The position numbers and the translations under genes were made by a program. The notes beneath the pieces were generated by a model that made no database searches, had not been told where the DNA came from, and saw only the letters and a list, made by a program, of their open reading frames with translations. This document shows positions 1 through 6,008 of a DNA stretch of 64,000 bases, piece after piece (position 1 is the stretch's first letter; every line of letters begins with the position of its first letter). Origin of the DNA: Ornithinimicrobium pekingense DSM 21552 (GTDB taxonomy: Bacteria; Actinomycetota; Actinomycetes; Actinomycetales; Dermatophilaceae); the NCBI RefSeq assembly GCF_000421185.1, contig NZ_ATWJ01000013.1, positions 1-64,000 on the forward strand. The letters run 5' to 3'.

Positions 1-893
1 TGCACTCGGTCCAGATGTCCCTCTCTGGCCGGGCGCTGCTGCACGGTGAGGACCTGCTGCTGGCCAACATCCGTGACGCCGACACCCTGGCCGAGCACTT
101 CGCCGAGCTCAAGCCCGACGTCGTCTTCCACGCCGCCGCGCTCAAGCACCTGTCCTTGTTGGAGCGCTACCCCGCCGAGGCGTGGAAGACCAACGTGCTG
201 GGCACCCTCAACGTCCTGGCCGCAGCCGCCGAGGCCGGGGTGGGCACGTTCGTCAACATCTCCACCGACAAGGCCGCCGCGCCCACCTCCGTCCTGGGCT
301 ACTCCAAGCGCGTCGCCGAACGCCTCACCGCGCACTACGCCCGCACCCAGCCCGGCCGGTACGTCTCCGTCCGCTTCGGCAACGTCCTGGGCTCGCGCGG
401 TTCGGTCATCCCCGCGTTCACCGAGCAGATCCGCCGCGGCGGGCCTGTCACCGTCACCCACCCCGACGTCGAGCGCTACTTCATGCTCATCCCCGAGGCC
501 TGCCAGCTCGTGCTGCAGGCCGGCGCGATCGGTCGCGACGGCCAGGCCGTCGTGCTGGACATGGGCACTCCCGTCAAGATCGTCGACGTCGCCCGCGAGC
601 TCATCGCCCTCTCCGGCCGGGAGGACATCGAGATCCAGTACACCGGCCTACGCCCCGGCGAAAAACTCTCCGAAGACCTCTTCACCCACGGAGAGACCCA
701 CCTCGCAGCAGGCCACCCCCTCATGACCGCCGTCAACGTCAACCCCCTCGACCCCGGCGCTGTCGCCGGCCCGGTCCTCACGGGCGAGGTCACTCCGGCC
801 CTGCGGTCGTATGCCGTCGACCAGCCCGCGGAGCAGCAGGCCTTGCCTCCGGCCACCGATCCGTCCCAGGAGAGCACTGACCGAATCGACTGA
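1..893 (+). CDS. FlaA1/CapD-type nucleotide-sugar 4,6-dehydratase, 5' end cut by window
   Basis: Polysaccharide_synt_2-type dehydratase of the FlaA1/CapD/PglF/WbpM family, which converts UDP-GlcNAc-type sugars to 4-keto-6-deoxy intermediates. The frame is already open at base 3 (H-S-V-Q before the first ATG at 15), so the N-terminal Rossmann GxGGxxGSE motif, and any membrane segments, lie outside the window. Visible family motifs are FHAAALKH, the STDKA loop (codons 261-272), LGYSKR (294-311), RFGNVLGSRGSV and the C-terminal LRPGEKLSEDLF. The Tyr of a standard YxxxK is Leu here; substitution at this position is known in this family (Met in WbpM). With the PglD-like acetyltransferase (50656-51300), the DegT aminotransferases and the PglC-like transferase (5313-6008) it could supply a UDP-diamino-trideoxy sugar; that link is inferred. 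Confidence 0.9.
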   Translation, partial: HSVQMSLSGRALLHGEDLLLANIRDADTLAEHFAELKPDVVFHAAALKHLSLLERYPAEAWKTNVLGTLNVLAAAAEAGVGTFVNISTDKAAAPTSVLGYSKRVAERLTAHYARTQPGRYVSVRFGNVLGSRGSVIPAFTEQIRRGGPVTVTHPDVERYFMLIPEACQLVLQAGAIGRDGQAVVLDMGTPVKIVDVARELIALSGREDIEIQYTGLRPGEKLSEDLFTHGETHLAAGHPLMTAVNVNPLDPGAVAGPVLTGEVTPALRSYAVDQPAEQQALPPATDPSQESTDRID

Positions 894-957
894 GTCTGGT
901 CGGCAAACGCCGGGCGCTGTGAGAATTCGGGGCTGTCGCACCCACCCTGGTTGCTGC

Positions 958-1006
958 CAGACTGTGCCCAGAGGCGCTTGCCGTGGAGCGCATCTGGTGC
1001 AGGAGG
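958..1006 (+). promoter_or_regulatory. Leader element R0: CAGACTG block, GCGC hairpin, Shine-Dalgarno
   Basis: First of three related leaders. CCAGACTG (957-964) is followed by a hairpin: CCAGA (968-972), one mismatched g, GCGCT (974-978), 8-nt loop, AGCGC (987-991), one a, TCTGG (993-997). Three bases later comes AGGAGG (1001-1006), 6 nt before the GTG at 1013. The CAGACTG block, the GCGC-stem position and the distance to the ribosome binding site recur at 1742-1837 and 5026-5150. The block upstream of CAGACTG is much less well conserved here than in the other two copies. Function unknown; it could act as RNA or as a DNA operator. Confidence 0.5.
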
Positions 1007-1012
1007 TGCGCC

Positions 1013-1729
1013 GTGCGTCGTCGGAGACGTTGGCGCCAGGATGGCTGGCGCGTGGAGCGGGCCGAGGTAGGTCGGACCCCGTCGGTCGAGCATGCCCTCG
1101 CGTGCGCCCGTGAGCACCTGCAGGACAGGGTGGTTCTCGTCACCGGTGCCGGCGGGGCGGTCGGGTCTGAGCTGTGCCGCCAGATCGCCGGCCACGGACC
1201 GGCGCGGTTGCTCCTGCTCGACCACGACGAGAGCCGACTGGTCGCGGCCTGGCTGTCGCTGGCGACCCCCTCCCCCGCCCGGTGGGACGACCTGCTGCTC
1301 GTCGACGTCCGGGACGTCGACGCCCTGGCCGAGTCGGTCGTCCCGGCCCATCCCGACATCGTGATCCACGCTGCCGCGCTGAGCGACCGTGACCTGCTCG
1401 AGCGCCACCCGCGCGAGGCGTGGATGACCAACGCCGTCGGCACCCGCAACGTCCTCGACGTGGCGGCCCGCGCCGGCACCGGGCTCTTCGTCACCGTCTC
1501 CTCCTCCGTCGCCGCCGGCGAGAGCTGCGTGCTCGGGCAGACCATGCGCATGGCCGAGGACCTCACGGCGGCCTGGGCCCGTGACGAGCCCGGACGCTAT
1601 GTCTCAGTCCGGCTGGGGGACGCGGCGGGCGCGAGTGACGCCGGCCTCCTGCAGGACCTCGTCCGGCGGGTCCTGGGGGCCGTTGCCAGCGACCTGGATG
1701 GCTGCGTCATCGGCGCACCGGCCGTGTGA
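1013..1729 (+). CDS. Degenerate FlaA1/CapD-like dehydratase paralogue, probably inactive
   Basis: A 238-residue protein clearly related to the upstream dehydratase. It keeps the NAD-binding GAGGAVGSELCRQIA, VIHAAAL, DLLERHPREAWMTNAVGTRNVL and PGRYVSVRLG. The catalytic segment is altered: STDKA of the neighbour is SSSVA here (codons 1499-1513) and LGYSK is LGQTM (codon 1544 is Met), so the Asp/Lys of the TDK loop and the catalytic Lys are gone. It also stops before the RPGEK region, about 110 residues short. The GTG at 1013 is chosen because AGGAGG lies 6 nt upstream; an in-frame GTG at 983 falls inside the leader hairpin. The frame is open and translatable, so it may be a relic in early decay or a binding-only paralogue. 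The Arg-rich N terminus resembles the start of the small protein at 5158. Confidence 0.7.
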   Translation: MRRRRRWRQDGWRVERAEVGRTPSVEHALACAREHLQDRVVLVTGAGGAVGSELCRQIAGHGPARLLLLDHDESRLVAAWLSLATPSPARWDDLLLVDVRDVDALAESVVPAHPDIVIHAAALSDRDLLERHPREAWMTNAVGTRNVLDVAARAGTGLFVTVSSSVAAGESCVLGQTMRMAEDLTAAWARDEPGRYVSVRLGDAAGASDAGLLQDLVRRVLGAVASDLDGCVIGAPAV

Positions 1730-1741
1730 CGCCGACCACAC

Positions 1742-1837
1742 AATCATCCTGCAGGGGGATTGCGCGCCTCGCGGTCGCTACCAGACTGCTCACAGGTTGC
1801 GCTTTGTAGGGGAGCGCGCCCCGTCGCAGGGAAGGGG
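1742..1837 (+). promoter_or_regulatory. Leader element R1: conserved blocks, GCGC hairpin, Shine-Dalgarno
   Basis: Second copy of the leader. An AATCATCCT...AGGGGGATTGCGCG block (1742-1767) precedes CCAGACTG (1781-1788) and CACAGGT (1791-1797). A hairpin with GCGCT (1800-1804) and AGCGC (1813-1817) follows, with loop TTGTAGGGG. The purine run AAGGGG (1832-1837) precedes adjacent GTG-ATG codons at 1845/1848. The copy at 5026-5150 shares all these blocks in the same order and also has GTG-ATG at its end. Shared sequence continues past the start codon (GCAGGCGCCGG in both), which points to duplication of the whole gene head. Confidence 0.5.
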
Positions 1838-1847
1838 CTGCACCGTG

Positions 1848-1904
1848 ATGCAGTCGGATGCATGCTGTCGGCACGCAGGCGCCGGACGAGAGGCCTGGGC
1901 ATGA
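1848..1904 (+). CDS. Possible 18-residue leader peptide overlapping the next start
   Basis: A short frame (MQSDACCRHAGAGREAWA) starts at ATG 1848, or at the adjacent GTG 1845, about 10 nt after AAGGGG. It ends in a TGA (1902-1904) that overlaps the ATG of the next gene at 1901 as ATGA, an arrangement typical of translational coupling. It occupies the same place, after the same leader, as the longer small frame at 5158-5316. There is no homology to support it; it could equally be an untranslated stretch. Confidence 0.35.
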   Translation: MQSDACCRHAGAGREAWA

Positions 1905-2761
1905 CACGGGCACGGGAGGCCCCACGCCGCGGCCCGGTCGTCATCCTGGGTGGGACCGCCGTGCAGGTCGAGGCCGTGCACGCCGCCCACGCGCTGGGCC
2001 GTGAGGCGCACGCCGTGACGACGGCGTGCGCGGATGCGGTGGGGGCGGCTGCCGACGAGGTCGCGCTCATGGACCTCGCTGACGTGGACGCGGTGACGCG
2101 CTACGCCCAGCACGTGGGCGCCGCGGCGGTCTACTCCGTCGGCTCGGACGAGGCGATGCCGGTCGTGGCCGAGGTGACGGAGCGGCTCGGGCTGCTCGGC
2201 CTGGTGGGCCGGCGGACCGTCGACCTGTGCCGCCATGAGCACCAGCTCAGGGCGGTGCTGGCCGGCGCGCCCGGGGCGCCAGCCAGCCCAGAGCGCGTCC
2301 CGGGACCTGACATCTCCGTCACCGGCTTCCTCTGGGGCGGCGAGCTGGTCTTCGTCGGCGTCTCCGACCGAGACTGCCGGGCCGAGGACGGTGACCTGGT
2401 CCACGCGCATACCTTCCCCTCGCGGTCAGCGGACTGCCTGGAGGTGCACGAGGCCGTCGTCGTCCTCGACGCCGCCTGCCAGCGGATCGGGCTGCTCGAC
2501 GGACCCGTCCACGCGCGGATGGTCGTCGGCCCGGACGGGGTGCGGCTGACGAGGCTCTCGCCGCGGCTGGACGGCTGTCACCTGTGGCGGCTGTGGCGCG
2601 AGGTCACCGGGGTCGACCTGCTGACCGCCGCGGTCGCCGGTGCCTGCGGGGAGCGGCCGGCGCTCGCCGTCCCGGACGGAGCACCGCTGGTGCCGGTGTG
2701 GCCGCGGTCGGGCGACCAGTCGGTCAGCCTGGATCCTGCCGAGGGGATGGCCGTCGCATGA
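1901..2761 (+). CDS. Degenerate ATP-grasp-like protein lacking the ATP-binding core
   Basis: The first 105 or so residues look like the pre-ATP-grasp domain of CarB/PylC-type ligases (VVILGGTAVQVEAVHAAHALG, then YSVGSDEAMPVVAEVTERLG and a helix ending RHEHQLRAVL). The rest looks like the C-terminal part of such enzymes (PDISVTGFLWGGELVFVGVSDR, HTFPS, GPVHARMVV, TGVDLL). Between them the expected stretch with the ATP-binding lysines and glycine-rich loop is missing: about 15 residues join the two halves. At 286 residues the protein is roughly 100 shorter than typical relatives. This looks like an internal deletion that leaves the frame intact. ATG 1901 is preferred (GAGAGG at 1888-1893). The 3' end overlaps the next gene by ATGA. 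Confidence 0.6.
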   Translation: MTRAREAPRRGPVVILGGTAVQVEAVHAAHALGREAHAVTTACADAVGAAADEVALMDLADVDAVTRYAQHVGAAAVYSVGSDEAMPVVAEVTERLGLLGLVGRRTVDLCRHEHQLRAVLAGAPGAPASPERVPGPDISVTGFLWGGELVFVGVSDRDCRAEDGDLVHAHTFPSRSADCLEVHEAVVVLDAACQRIGLLDGPVHARMVVGPDGVRLTRLSPRLDGCHLWRLWREVTGVDLLTAAVAGACGERPALAVPDGAPLVPVWPRSGDQSVSLDPAEGMAVA

Positions 2762-3645
2762 GGTTCGTGGTCACCGGGGCAACCGGGACGCTCGGCCGGT
2801 ATGTCGTCAACCGGCTGCGCGACTCCGGCCACGACGTGCTCGGGCTGTCGCGCACGGGGGCGGGCGGGCACACGGCCACCGACTACTCGGTGGAGTCGCT
2901 GTCGGCGCTCTTCCAGGGCGCGGACGGGGTGGTCGACCTCGCCGCCGCCCGGCCGCGGCCCGATGAGCGGCTCGACCTGGCCACGACTGTCGTCACCGCC
3001 GGCAACGTGCTGGAGGCCGCGTGCCGGGCCTGGGTTCGCACCCTGGTGCAGGCTTCCAGCGTTGCGGTCTACGGCCCGGAGGCACCGCGGCCGCTGCACG
3101 AGGCCTCCCCCACGCGTCCTCGCTCGCCCTACGCCCTGGGCAAGCTGACGGTGGAGCGCTGGGCCCGGCTGGACGACTACGTCGAGCTGCGGACCGTGAG
3201 CCTGCGCCTGTCGCACCTCATCGGCCTCGGTGACGACAGCGGTTCCCTCGTCAGCACCTACCTGCGCCGAGCCACGGCCGGGGAGAACCTCGAGGTGCAC
3301 GAGCCCCTCGGGCCTGCACGCGGCTACCTCTACGCCGGTGACGCCGCCCGGGCCGTCGAGCTGGCGCTGTGCACGGAGACGGCAGGCGGCGCCGTCAACG
3401 TGGCCGGCCCTCACCTGCTCACCCCGGCCCAGCTCGCGCAGGTGGTCAGCGAGGAGGTGGGCGGGTCGGTCGTCGGTGGTGACCCGGCGTGGCGGCACGC
3501 CCCGTGGCACAGCACGGCCGACGAGGTCGACACGACGCGGGCGCGAGAGGCGCTCGGCTTCGCCCCGGAGCACGACGTGCGCACCGCGCTGCAGGAGATC
3601 AGGCAGGTTCTGGACCGGCAGGCCGTGTCGGAGCAGGTGTCGTGA
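2758..3645 (+). CDS. NAD-dependent epimerase/dehydratase
   Basis: Extended short-chain dehydrogenase of 295 residues. It starts with the nucleotide-binding MRFVVTGATGTLGRYVV (TGxxGxxG), has the catalytic SSVAVYG and SPYALGK (YxxxK) pair in the middle, and ends with a substrate-domain segment of ALGFAPEHDVRTAL type. Such proteins epimerise, dehydrate or reduce nucleotide-activated sugars in the cytoplasm; the substrate cannot be read from the sequence. ATG 2758 overlaps the stop of the preceding gene as ATGA, so the two are translationally coupled. Confidence 0.85.
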   Translation: MRFVVTGATGTLGRYVVNRLRDSGHDVLGLSRTGAGGHTATDYSVESLSALFQGADGVVDLAAARPRPDERLDLATTVVTAGNVLEAACRAWVRTLVQASSVAVYGPEAPRPLHEASPTRPRSPYALGKLTVERWARLDDYVELRTVSLRLSHLIGLGDDSGSLVSTYLRRATAGENLEVHEPLGPARGYLYAGDAARAVELALCTETAGGAVNVAGPHLLTPAQLAQVVSEEVGGSVVGGDPAWRHAPWHSTADEVDTTRAREALGFAPEHDVRTALQEIRQVLDRQAVSEQVS

Positions 3646-3687
3646 CCGTCGCGGACGCGGGCGCCACCGCGCCGCCCGGGGTCGTCC

Positions 3688-4950
3688 GTGCCTGAGCTGC
3701 TGCTCCTGACCAATTGCTTCCCCTACGGCGCCGGGGAGGACTACCTCGAGGCTGAGCTGCCTCACCTCGCCGCCGCCTTCGACCGGGTGGTCGTCGTCCC
3801 GACCATGCAGGTTCGCGGGCAACCACCGACGCGTCAGGTGCCCGAGGGTGTCGTAGTGGTGCCGGTCGACCTCCCGCCGGGGCGGGCCGGACGGTTGATG
3901 ACCCCGCTGGGCGAGCTGCGCCGGGGCGCGGTGGGATGGGGGCTGCCGCACCTGCCGACGGCGCCGCCCTTCGCGCCCGTCCCGCACGCCTACGAGGCCT
4001 ACTTCGAGGCGCGCGCGCAGGGCATCGCCCGCCTCGTCACGGTCCGGCTGGCCGAGGCCGGGATCGCGGTCCCCGAGGTCGTCTACGCCTACTGGTTCTA
4101 CGTCACCACCCGCGTGGCCACGCTGCTGGCGGTGCACCGACCGGAGGGGCGACCGGTGGTCGTGGCCCGCGCCCACGGGTATGACGTGGACGTCGAGGCC
4201 TCCCCCGTCGGCTACCTGCCGCAGCGGGGCCTGCTGCTGCGCGAGGTCGACCACCTCTTCCCCGTCTCCGAGCGGGCGGCGGAGCGGCTGCGTACCGGCT
4301 GGCCCGAGCACGCCGACAAGATCTCCGTGCGCCGGCTCGGCAGCGTCGGATCGAGCGCGGCGCCGGTGTCTCGGCAGCACCCGATGCACGTGCTCACCGT
4401 CTCGTCCGTGCGACGGCGCGAGCGGCTGCACCTTGTCGCCGACGCGGTGGGGCTGCTGCAGCGCGACGGCGTGCCGGTGACGTGGACCCACCTCGGCGGC
4501 GGCACACCCGCCGCCGAGGCGGCGCTGCGTCGCCGGGCGGCCCGAATGGCGCCCGGGTCGGTCGAGCTGGTCGGTCCCGTGCCGCGCGCGGAGGTGCTGC
4601 ACCGGCTGGCCACCTGCCGTCCCACCGTGCTCGTCAACGTGTCTATGAGCGAGGGCGTGCCCATGTCGGTGATGGAGGCGATGGCCCACGGGGTGCCGGT
4701 CCTGGCCACCGACGTCGGCGCGGCTCGCGAGCTCCTCCTGGACCAGCCCGCGCTGCCGTTGCTGCCGCCCGACCTCGACACGGCATACCTGGCCGGGGCG
4801 CTGCTGGGCGTCGACGTGCTGCCGCCGAGCGCCTACGCGCGGGTCTGCGCCGCCAACCAGGCCGCGTGGCGGGCCGGGTGGGACGCCGGCGTCGTGCTCG
4901 CCGACTTCGCCTCCGAGCTGGCGTCGCTCGCAGGCCAGGTGCGCAGGTGA
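3688..4950 (+). CDS. GT4-type glycosyltransferase
   Basis: A 420-residue GT-B glycosyltransferase. The N-terminal half begins MPELLLLTNCFPYGAGEDYLEAE, as in GT4 enzymes; the C-terminal half has the donor-binding signature region SEGVPMSVMEAMAHGVPVLATDVGAARELL with the E-x7-E-type pattern. Expected role is adding one sugar to a lipid-linked oligosaccharide on the cytoplasmic face of the membrane. It starts at GTG, 42 bases after the epimerase stop, and belongs to the same run of plus-strand genes. Confidence 0.85.
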   Translation: MPELLLLTNCFPYGAGEDYLEAELPHLAAAFDRVVVVPTMQVRGQPPTRQVPEGVVVVPVDLPPGRAGRLMTPLGELRRGAVGWGLPHLPTAPPFAPVPHAYEAYFEARAQGIARLVTVRLAEAGIAVPEVVYAYWFYVTTRVATLLAVHRPEGRPVVVARAHGYDVDVEASPVGYLPQRGLLLREVDHLFPVSERAAERLRTGWPEHADKISVRRLGSVGSSAAPVSRQHPMHVLTVSSVRRRERLHLVADAVGLLQRDGVPVTWTHLGGGTPAAEAALRRRAARMAPGSVELVGPVPRAEVLHRLATCRPTVLVNVSMSEGVPMSVMEAMAHGVPVLATDVGAARELLLDQPALPLLPPDLDTAYLAGALLGVDVLPPSAYARVCAANQAAWRAGWDAGVVLADFASELASLAGQVRR

Positions 4951-5025
4951 GGGCTCGGGCCACTCCGGGCTGCCCGTCCGGCCACTGCCTTCTCACGGGT
5001 CACACGGGGCCCAGATGCACGCCCA

Positions 5026-5150
5026 GAATCCTCCCAGGGAGTGATTCGCGTCACGTCTACGCCCCGACAGACTGGCCCGCAGGTCGCGCCCAACAGGGGG
5101 GCGCGGTCGCCCGGATCGCGCTTGTAGGGGGCGCGACCGCACGCAGGAGG
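5026..5150 (+). promoter_or_regulatory. Leader element R2 with alternative helices and Shine-Dalgarno
   Basis: Third leader copy. AATCCTCC (5027-5034), GTGATTCGCG (5041-5050), CAGACTG (5068-5074), GCAGGTCGCGC and AGGGG blocks match R1 in order. GCGCGACC (5131-5138) can pair with GGTCGCGC at 5082-5089 (8 bp, perfect), with GGaTCGCGC at 5113-5121 (one bulged base, loop TTGTAGGGG) or, shifted, with GCGGTCGC at 5103-5110. These pairings exclude one another. AGGAGG (5145-5150) sits 7 nt before ATG 5158, and CCTCC at 5030-5034 could in principle mask it. The 362-bp gap 4951-5312 holds this leader and the small frame that follows it. Confidence 0.5.
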
Positions 5151-5157
5151 ACCCGTG

Positions 5158-5316
5158 ATGTTCTTGCGCAGGCGCCGGGGTGGCCGGCGGACCGATGTCA
5201 GACGCTGGGGCGAGGCCTCGGCGACCGGCCCGGAGGCGGCGTGCAGGACGACCGACTGGTCGCGCCATAGACCGGTGACCGATCCTCCAGGACGCGACAT
5301 CACACCTCGACCGTGA
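5158..5316 (+). CDS. Small Arg-rich protein coupled to the sugar transferase
   Basis: A 52-residue frame starting MFLRRRRGGRRTDVRRWGE and ending DITPRP. It has the best ribosome binding site of the region (AGGAGG, 7-nt spacing), while the sugar transferase that follows has none of its own. Its TGA (5314-5316) overlaps the GTG at 5313 as GTGA, so translation of the transferase probably depends on it. No domain is recognisable. It may be a true small protein, a leader peptide, or the remnant head of a duplicated gene, since its start resembles the Arg-rich N terminus at 1013. Confidence 0.5.
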   Translation: MFLRRRRGGRRTDVRRWGEASATGPEAACRTTDWSRHRPVTDPPGRDITPRP

Positions 5317-6008
5317 CGGTGGTGCGACGCACGGACGCGCTGTCCCTGCGTCTTCCGCTCGTCTCCCGCTTCGACCTCTCCCCCACCGCGGTCGCGGCTC
5401 CCCCCGCCGACGTGCACCCGCACGCGGGCTCACCGCTCAAGCGCTGCGGCGACCTCACCGGGGGCCTGGTCCTGCTCGTCTTCTTCCTGCTGATGCTGCC
5501 GGTCGCAGCAGTCCTCATCAGGCTCGACAGCCCGGGCACGGTGATCTACCGCCAGACCAGGGTCGGGCTCCACGGGGTGCCGTTCACGATCTACAAGTTC
5601 CGCACGATGTGCCGGGACGCGGAGGCCGACGGACGGGCCCGGTGGGCTCAGGAGGGCGACCCCCGCGTGACCCGGTGCGGGCGCTTCCTGCGCGCGACCC
5701 GGCTCGACGAGGTGCCACAGGCCATCAACGTCCTGCGCGGGGAGATGTCCCTCGTGGGACCTCGACCGGAGCGCCCGGAGCTGACCGACGTGCTGGTGGA
5801 GCAGCACGCCAACTACCTGCACCGGCTGACCATCAAGCCGGGCCTGACGGGCCTGGCGCAGGTCAAGCACCGCTACACCAGCTCGATGGAGGACTGGCGA
5901 CGCAAGCTGAGCTACGACCTGGCCTACGCGCGGTGGGCCAGCCACCGGCTGGACCTGTGCATCCTGCTGCGCACCATCCGCGTCGTCCTCACGATGCGGG
6001 GGACCTGA
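5313..6008 (+). CDS. PglC-type priming sugar-1-phosphate transferase
   Basis: Bacterial sugar transferase (PF02397) of 231 residues, the short monotopic form. An N-terminal hydrophobic segment ([20 protein letters not shown], about residues 53-72) follows the KRCGDLTGG lead. Then come the family motifs [16 protein letters not shown], the [16 protein letters not shown] active-site region, [11 protein letters not shown] and [10 protein letters not shown]. It should transfer a sugar 1-phosphate from a UDP-sugar to undecaprenyl phosphate, the first membrane step. The chosen GTG overlaps the small gene upstream by 4 nt; the ends meet a convergent flippase gene. A second, longer priming enzyme is at 26116-27624. 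Confidence 0.88.

What the first reader, a model, noticed from the sequence alone, without database searches (positions are those of the whole stretch)
932..5160. Three related leader elements (R0, R1, R2) before three polysaccharide genes
CAGACTG, then C-rich/CAGG, then a hairpin with a GCGC stem, then a purine-rich ribosome binding site, recurs at 958-1006, 1742-1837 and 5026-5150. R1 and R2 also share an upstream AATC-TCC...GATT-GCG block. The hairpins keep their position although the pairs differ: GCGCT/AGCGC in R0 and R1, TCGCGC/GCGCGA in R2; R0 adds a CCAGA/TCTGG extension. Different bases keeping the same pairing suggests an RNA structure. I do not recognise it as any known actinobacterial riboswitch (c-di-GMP, ydaO, SAM, cobalamin signatures absent).
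Basis: partly seen in the sequence, partly recalled or inferred. Interest (0 to 1): 0.75.

Follow-up and report, generated by a model that had tools for sequence, protein, structure and literature searches.

The report
Narrow RNA-like leader before polysaccharide genes
A short, probably RNA-folding DNA element sits before two, perhaps three, genes of one surface-sugar gene cluster in an Ornithinimicrobium bacterium; a matching copy in a sister species suggests that it is a real but very narrowly distributed gene-control signal, with no tested function.

Summary
The repeated leader is real. R1 (1742-1818) and R2 (5027-5136) share a 5' hairpin (AATC-nTCC/GGA-GATT), CAGACTG, CAGGT and a GC-rich hairpin. 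A clear orthologue of R1 lies between orthologous genes in a second genome of the genus, G109. A covariance model built from R1 and G109 alone finds R2 as its only other hit at E<=1 in the window's genome (36.5 bits, E 4e-4). Three of 16 model pairs change on both sides. R0 is the weak member: it resembles R1 pairwise, but a model without R0 does not find it (12.2 bits), and its G109 counterpart keeps a hairpin but no CAGACTG. R1, R2 and the G109 copy are each followed by a small ORF whose stop overlaps the next start. Nothing matches Rfam 15. No convincing copy turned up in the other 29 of 31 genus genomes, and among 396 order genomes only the own one matched. Most likely a lineage-specific intercistronic control RNA, not a riboswitch class. 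Operator DNA or a duplicated relic remain possible.

The parts
948..1006 (+). R0: CAGACTG (958-964), CCAGA (968-972)/TCTGG (993-997) outer stem, GCGCT (974-978)/AGCGC (987-991) hairpin, SD GCAGGAGG (999-1006)
   Evidence: similar to R1 (score 29, shuffle maximum 32, 5 of 1000 shuffles as high), but only 12.2 bits, E 0.3 with a model that left it out
1013..1729 (+). R0 gene: 238-aa shortened CapD-like protein, Polysacc_synt_2, without the two conserved lysine motifs of the intact relative
1742..1761 (+). R1 5' hairpin P1: AATC.TCC...GATT
1782..1797 (+). R1 conserved segment CAGACTG-CTCA-CAGGT
1798..1818 (+). R1 main hairpin P2: 8-bp stem, loop GUAGG (1806-1810)
   Evidence: in the minimum-energy fold, not in that; G109 orthologue with U-A to C-G change
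1827..1837 (+). SD-like CAGGGAAGGGG in front of the R1 small ORF
1845..1904 (+). small ORF after R1 (GTG 1845 or ATG 1848; MQSDACCRHAGAGREAWA), stop overlaps ATG 1901
1901..2761 (+). R1 gene: 286-aa relative of a 407-aa ATP-grasp-like protein (label from reading) of Ornithinimicrobium sp. F0845; an internal stretch and the C-terminus are missing; no Pfam match at E<=0.001
5027..5046 (+). R2 5' hairpin P1: AATCCTCC-CAG-GGAG-T-GATT
5068..5084 (+). R2 conserved segment CAGACTG-GCCCG-CAGGT
5085..5105 (+). R2 hairpin P2a, the homologue of the R1 hairpin
   Evidence: found by a model made without R2; fold
5116..5136 (+).
5155..5316 (+). small ORF after R2 (GTG 5155 or ATG 5158; 52 aa from ATG), SD CAGGAGGA at 5144; stop overlaps GTG 5313
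5313..6008 (+). R2 gene: bacterial sugar transferase (Bac_transf)

Best explanation
R1 and R2 are copies of one lineage-specific, structured intercistronic mRNA element of about 80-110 nt. P1, the CAGACUG and CAGGU segments and the GUAGG-loop hairpin lie just upstream of a Shine-Dalgarno and a small ORF whose stop overlaps the start of the next enzyme gene. I infer that the element, probably bound by a protein or small RNA at the conserved loop or segments, sets translation (or mRNA stability) of the small ORF and, through coupling at the NTGA overlap, of the enzyme. R0 is a diverged or partial copy that keeps mainly the hairpin-before-SD part. Shown: sequence conservation, likely pairing, position, overlap. 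Inferred: transcription through the element, the bound factor, the coupling and the direction of control.
For: The orthologue in G109 lies between the orthologous genes (CapD-like and NAD-epimerase) and aligns over window 1738-1817 with 79% identity by blastn. The CAGACTG-to-hairpin core is 32 of 37 identical, against 66% and 57% at four-fold sites of the two flanking gene pairs (binomial P 6e-4). A model of R1+G109 alone finds R2: E 4.4e-4 in 3.85 Mb, no other hit of that genome at E<=1. Pairs 9-19, 64-84 and 69-79 change on both sides, and the structure beats all six slid controls. The gaps between R1 and G109 are 1 and 2 nt, which speaks against coding. 3 of 3 R1/R2-type copies are followed by a small ORF ending in ATGA or GTGA at the next start. 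At the R0 place G109 also has a hairpin before the SD (z -2.19, 6 of 200 shuffles as stable) with the SD block conserved. No sigma-70-like promoter or T-tailed terminator was found in 800-5400, which says little, since shuffles also give 0.1 and 0.2.
Against: Covariation rests on 3 sequences aligned to the model's own structure, and 39 of 500 shuffles match it. Over the 82 aligned columns R1-G109 identity (56 of 82) is not above four-fold sites (P 0.10). Folding energies of the leaders are ordinary (z -0.85, -0.38, -1.28; -0.24, 0.09, -0.48). SD pairing is not clearly above shuffled upstream sequence for R0 (50 of 200 as high), R1 (132) or G109-R1 (99), and only weakly for R2 (21) and the G109 R0 place (10). 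The small-ORF peptides are not alike. The R0 and R1 genes look reduced next to the F0845 cluster, which has no element.
Confidence: 0.43

Rival explanations
1. DNA operator: the AATCnTCC-3-GGAnnGATT dyad and CAGACTG are binding sites of a transcription factor that controls internal promoters of the cluster.
For: P1 arms are conserved as sequence in 3 of 3 copies (5 of 8 pairs never vary), which fits protein-DNA contact as well as RNA pairing; a dyad also produces apparent compensatory changes.
Against: The dyad is off-centre by one base in R2 and G109 (reading); R1 begins 12 nt after the preceding stop; the second conserved block is a hairpin right before an SD. No sigma-70-like promoter was found, but the scan does not cover other promoter types.
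Confidence: 0.18
2. Duplication relic: pieces of an older leader copied along with gene loss and duplication in a shrinking cluster, with little present function.
For: The R0 gene is a shortened CapD paralogue without the lysine motifs, the R1 gene lacks an internal part and the C-terminus, the ATP-grasp-like gene is absent next to the G109 copy; only 2 of 31 genus genomes have the element.
Against: The core is better conserved than four-fold sites; one of the core stem differences between R1 and G109 is a paired U-A to C-G change; the CapD-like gene is kept at 58% identity with dN/dS 0.55, like the epimerase at 0.59 (NG86, dN 0.322 and dS 0.581, dN 0.338 and dS 0.572; the YN00 method failed).
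Confidence: 0.26
3. Small-ligand riboswitch for a sugar nucleotide or second messenger.
For: Conserved unpaired segments and loop between two helices before enzyme genes of one pathway.
Against: No Rfam match; small simple fold without a conserved junction; no copy found beyond the genus; R2 carries an extra tandem hairpin.
Confidence: 0.07
4. Recruitment site for a NusG paralogue (RfaH/ops-JUMPstart or LoaP type), giving processive transcription of a long polysaccharide operon.
For: Same gene setting as JUMPstart (PMC2864571, passages) and a hairpin leader as for LoaP (PMC12691694, passages); GUAG in the hairpin loop.
Against: Only one NusG above the Pfam cut-off in each of 4 of 4 genus genomes searched, the window's own included; the LoaP hairpin is of UNCG type, unlike GUAGG; the ops octamer GGCGGTAG (recalled) is not in R0, R1, R2 or the G109 copy; no Rfam model, JUMPstart included, matched up to E 5.
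Confidence: 0.03

Closest known systems
JUMPstart/ops element (Rfam RF01707) with RfaH
   Same: Short element with a stem-loop in leaders of polysaccharide genes (PMC2864571, passages)
   Different: Gammaproteobacterial; works with the NusG paralogue RfaH; no match here; R1 and R2 sit between cistrons
epsC/EAR motif (RF01735) of Bacillales
   Same: Structured RNA before exopolysaccharide genes (PMC2864571, passages)
   Different: Another phylum; no match; here two or three copies inside one cluster
LoaP-bound dfn/mln leader hairpin
   Same: Small hairpin in a biosynthetic operon leader; LoaP is reported from Actinomycetota (PMC12691694, passages)
   Different: UNCG hairpin plus terminators; no NusG paralogue found in this genome; no terminator-like site here
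Leader-peptide or uORF-coupled control (recalled as a general bacterial layout)
   Same: Small ORF whose stop overlaps the next start
   Different: Peptides are not conserved between copies; stalling motifs were not tested

Membership tests
Any Rfam 15 family, JUMPstart and epsC included | Covariance-model score | tested here: not met
   0 matches at gathering score over the window; 0 up to E 5 over 880-5400 and over L048 8000-9200 of G109
RfaH/ops system | NusG paralogue in the genome | tested here: not met
   One PF02357 match above cut-off in each of 4 of 4 genomes; the second G000 match is 12.3 bits against a cut-off of 22.2
RfaH/ops system | ops octamer GGCGGTAG (recalled) in the element | tested here: not met
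   6 places in the window and 4 in L048 (both strands), none in R0, R1, R2 or the G109 copy
LoaP system | UNCG-type hairpin (PMC12691694, passages) | tested here: not met
   Loops read as GUAGG (R1, R2b, G109), ACAGG (R2a) and GCCGUG (R0)
Structured cis-regulatory RNA (general) | Homologues with compensatory changes | tested here: inconclusive
   One further homologue; 3 of 16 pairs change on both sides among 3 sequences; 39 of 500 shuffles as high
Structured cis-regulatory RNA (general) | Transcribed as part of the mRNA | not testable with these tools
   No transcript data
Riboswitch | Ligand-dependent switching | not testable with these tools
   Needs in-line probing

The most novel reading that the evidence does not exclude
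A hitherto undescribed control RNA, confined so far to a branch of Ornithinimicrobium, that is repeated inside one surface-polysaccharide operon and recognised by an unknown factor through CAGACUG, CAGGU and a GUAGG pentaloop, tuning each cistron through a coupled small ORF.
Probability: 0.3. Interest if true: 0.5.

Novelty: new member of a known kind. Interest (0 to 1): 0.36.

Why it matters
If real as RNA, it is an actinobacterial counterpart of the JUMPstart and epsC leaders in a genome where only one NusG was found, and it shows how a control element can be copied within one operon. Its narrow spread would also explain why comparative screens miss such elements. It does not by itself open a large question.

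Tried and rejected
Known RNA family: none by Rfam. Mobile repeat: only 3 strong copies in the own genome (74.6, 66.7 and 40.1 bits, next 20.1; 150 of 1113 candidates scored) and no plasmid match for R1 or phage match for the G109 copy. NusG-paralogue site: rejected. Intrinsic terminator or sigma-70 promoter: none found (shuffles 0.2 and 0.1). Coding remnant: gaps of 1 and 2 nt between orthologues and no similarity of the small-ORF regions to the F0845 cluster above shuffles. One frame through R1 is, however, open in both genomes: in the window it is in frame with the R1 gene, in G109 with the small ORF, so a translated extension is not fully excluded. SD sequestration by the leader: not clearly above shuffles. 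Conserved arginine-rich leader peptide: RRRR occurs near all three starts in the window, but of 15 peptide pairs only three scored high against shuffles, R2 small ORF with R1 N-terminus (6 of 200 shuffles as high), R0 with its orthologue (3 of 200) and R0 with R1 N-terminus (12 of 200), and the small-ORF peptides of R1 and G109 do not match (69 of 200).

Clusters of G020, G027 and F0845 hold relatives of the R1 gene but no element (best model score there 14.8 bits).

Limits: large scans use stricter filters and score only part of the candidates (24 per genome, 11, 150), so weak relatives can be missed.
Full report
What is there. The window is the first 64 kb of contig C13 of a 3.85-Mb genome. 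Another genome of the same genus (G121) carries the cluster found in Ornithinimicrobium sp. F0845, on a contig of the same length of 311,144, so the genus is very likely Ornithinimicrobium. The region reads CapD (up to 893), R0, shortened CapD-like gene (1013-1729), R1, small ORF, reduced ATP-grasp-like gene (1901-2761), NAD-epimerase (2758-3645), glycosyltransferase (3688-4950), R2, small ORF, sugar transferase (5313-6008) ('ATP-grasp' is my reading, no Pfam match for the window protein).

The observation. The best common reading is P1 (AATC-nTCC-3-GGA-n-n-GATT, R1 and R2 only; R1 fits it less well), 20-21 nt, CAGACTG, 4-5 nt, CAGGT, then at once an 8-bp hairpin P2. In R1 it is UGCGCUUU-GUAGG-GGAGCGCG; in R2, CGCGCCCA-ACAGG-GGGGCGCG, with a non-standard innermost pair. 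Pairwise scores of R1-R2 and R0-R1 exceed nearly all shuffles, R0-R2 does not; against real window sequence only R1 as query ranks R2 first. Simple motif counts are only moderately unusual. From the window alone the case would be open.

The second genome. A first model (A6) hit one new true place in 31 genus genomes, G109:C2:282951 (33.2 bits). It lies between a CapD-like gene (57-58% identical to the R0 gene product) and the NAD-epimerase (61% identical), so it is the orthologue of R1; blastn aligns window 1738-1817 with it at 79% over 85 columns. The ATP-grasp-like gene is missing at that place: a 37-codon small ORF follows, whose TGA overlaps the epimerase ATG.

Independent test of R2. The second model was built from R1 and the G109 copy only (A8). 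It finds R2 at 36.5 bits, E 4.4e-4 for the whole own genome, with no other hit of that genome at E up to 1, and nothing better than 24.2 bits in the other 29 genus genomes (that hit lies in a long unrelated ORF). R0 scores 14.8 and 12.2 bits in models that did not contain it, no better than background. At the R0 place G109 has a strong hairpin (stem GGCGCCGA/TCGGCGCC) right before a similar SD block, but no CAGACTG. R0 is therefore best called a partial or diverged copy.

Distribution. One of 396 order genomes (the own one) at E<=0.01. In 186 family genomes 6 matched at E<=0.05, only G000 and G109 above 30 bits; the other four (22.8-29.9 bits) do not look like homologues. F0845 has the fuller cluster, tightly packed, without the element. 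Of 31 genus genomes 3 have the epimerase at E<=1e-20, and 2 of these 3 have the element.

Structure evidence. On the three-sequence alignment A9, 93.8% of cells pair, 3 of 16 pairs change on both sides (C-G/G-C in P1; C-G/U-A twice in P2), and all six slid registers do worse; but 39 of 500 shuffles reach the covariation score, and A9 was fitted to the structure. The core from CAGACTG through P2 is 32 of 37 identical between R1 and G109, against about 61% at four-fold sites of the two flanking gene pairs (P 6e-4); 56 of 82 aligned columns are not above that level (P 0.10). Energies are not unusual, and the minimum-energy folds of longer stretches do not always contain the helices (R1, R0, R2 as one nested stem), while shorter stretches of R1, R2 and G109 show P1 and P2. 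So pairing is likely, not proven.

How it may work. R1 begins 12 nt and the G109 copy 19 nt after the preceding stop: an intercistronic position. No promoter-like or terminator-like site was found, in a scan that expects almost none. Behind each of R1, R2 and the G109 copy comes an SD-like stretch, a small ORF and an NTGA overlap with the next start. R2's target gene has no obvious SD of its own before GTG 5313 (reading). I infer translational control of the small ORF and coupling to the enzyme, with a protein or small RNA reading the conserved CAGACUG, CAGGU and GUAGG. SD sequestration by the leader alone is not clearly supported. A DNA operator cannot be excluded, since P1 is mostly conserved as sequence, nor can a relic.

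Comparison with what is known. Papers seen as passages only: PMC2864571 (JUMPstart and epsC motifs before polysaccharide genes) and PMC12691694 (LoaP and its UNCG hairpin, LoaP reported in Actinomycetota). Neither fits: no Rfam match, one NusG above cut-off in each of 4 genomes, other loops. My paper searches (listings only) turned up no description of such an element in Ornithinimicrobium; that is no proof of absence from print.

Verdict. A real, narrow, probably RNA-based control element; two good copies and one doubtful in the window, one orthologue elsewhere. A new member of the broad kind of structured leaders of polysaccharide genes. Interest moderate.

Noticed in passing
1013-1729 (and L048 8134-8901): A shortened CapD paralogue in which both lysine motifs of the intact relative (TDKAA and SKR) read SSxAA and T(M/L)(R/Q) in both species, yet it is 57-58% identical with dN/dS 0.55 (NG86), like its neighbour: looks like a conserved, catalytically dead CapD-like protein (the role of the lysines is recalled).
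   Followed up: partly
1901-2761: ATP-grasp-like protein that lacks an internal stretch and the C-terminus of its 407-aa relative in Ornithinimicrobium sp. F0845 and matches no Pfam family; the gene is absent next to the G109 copy.
   Followed up: partly
1-893 and G000:C11:343873-344409: The window starts at a contig end inside an intact-looking CapD gene; another CapD match lies on contig C11, so similar copies may have broken the assembly.
   Followed up: no
5079-5136: R2 can form either two neighbouring GC-rich hairpins or one long nested stem (GGTCGCGCCC with GGGCGCGACC), i.e. mutually exclusive folds.
   Followed up: no
1742-1837 and 5027-5151: The 5' arm of P1 could also pair with the SD (UCCUGC with GCAGGG in R1, UCCUCC with GGAGGA in R2; only CCUC with GAGG in G109), by reading; not tested against chance.
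   Followed up: no
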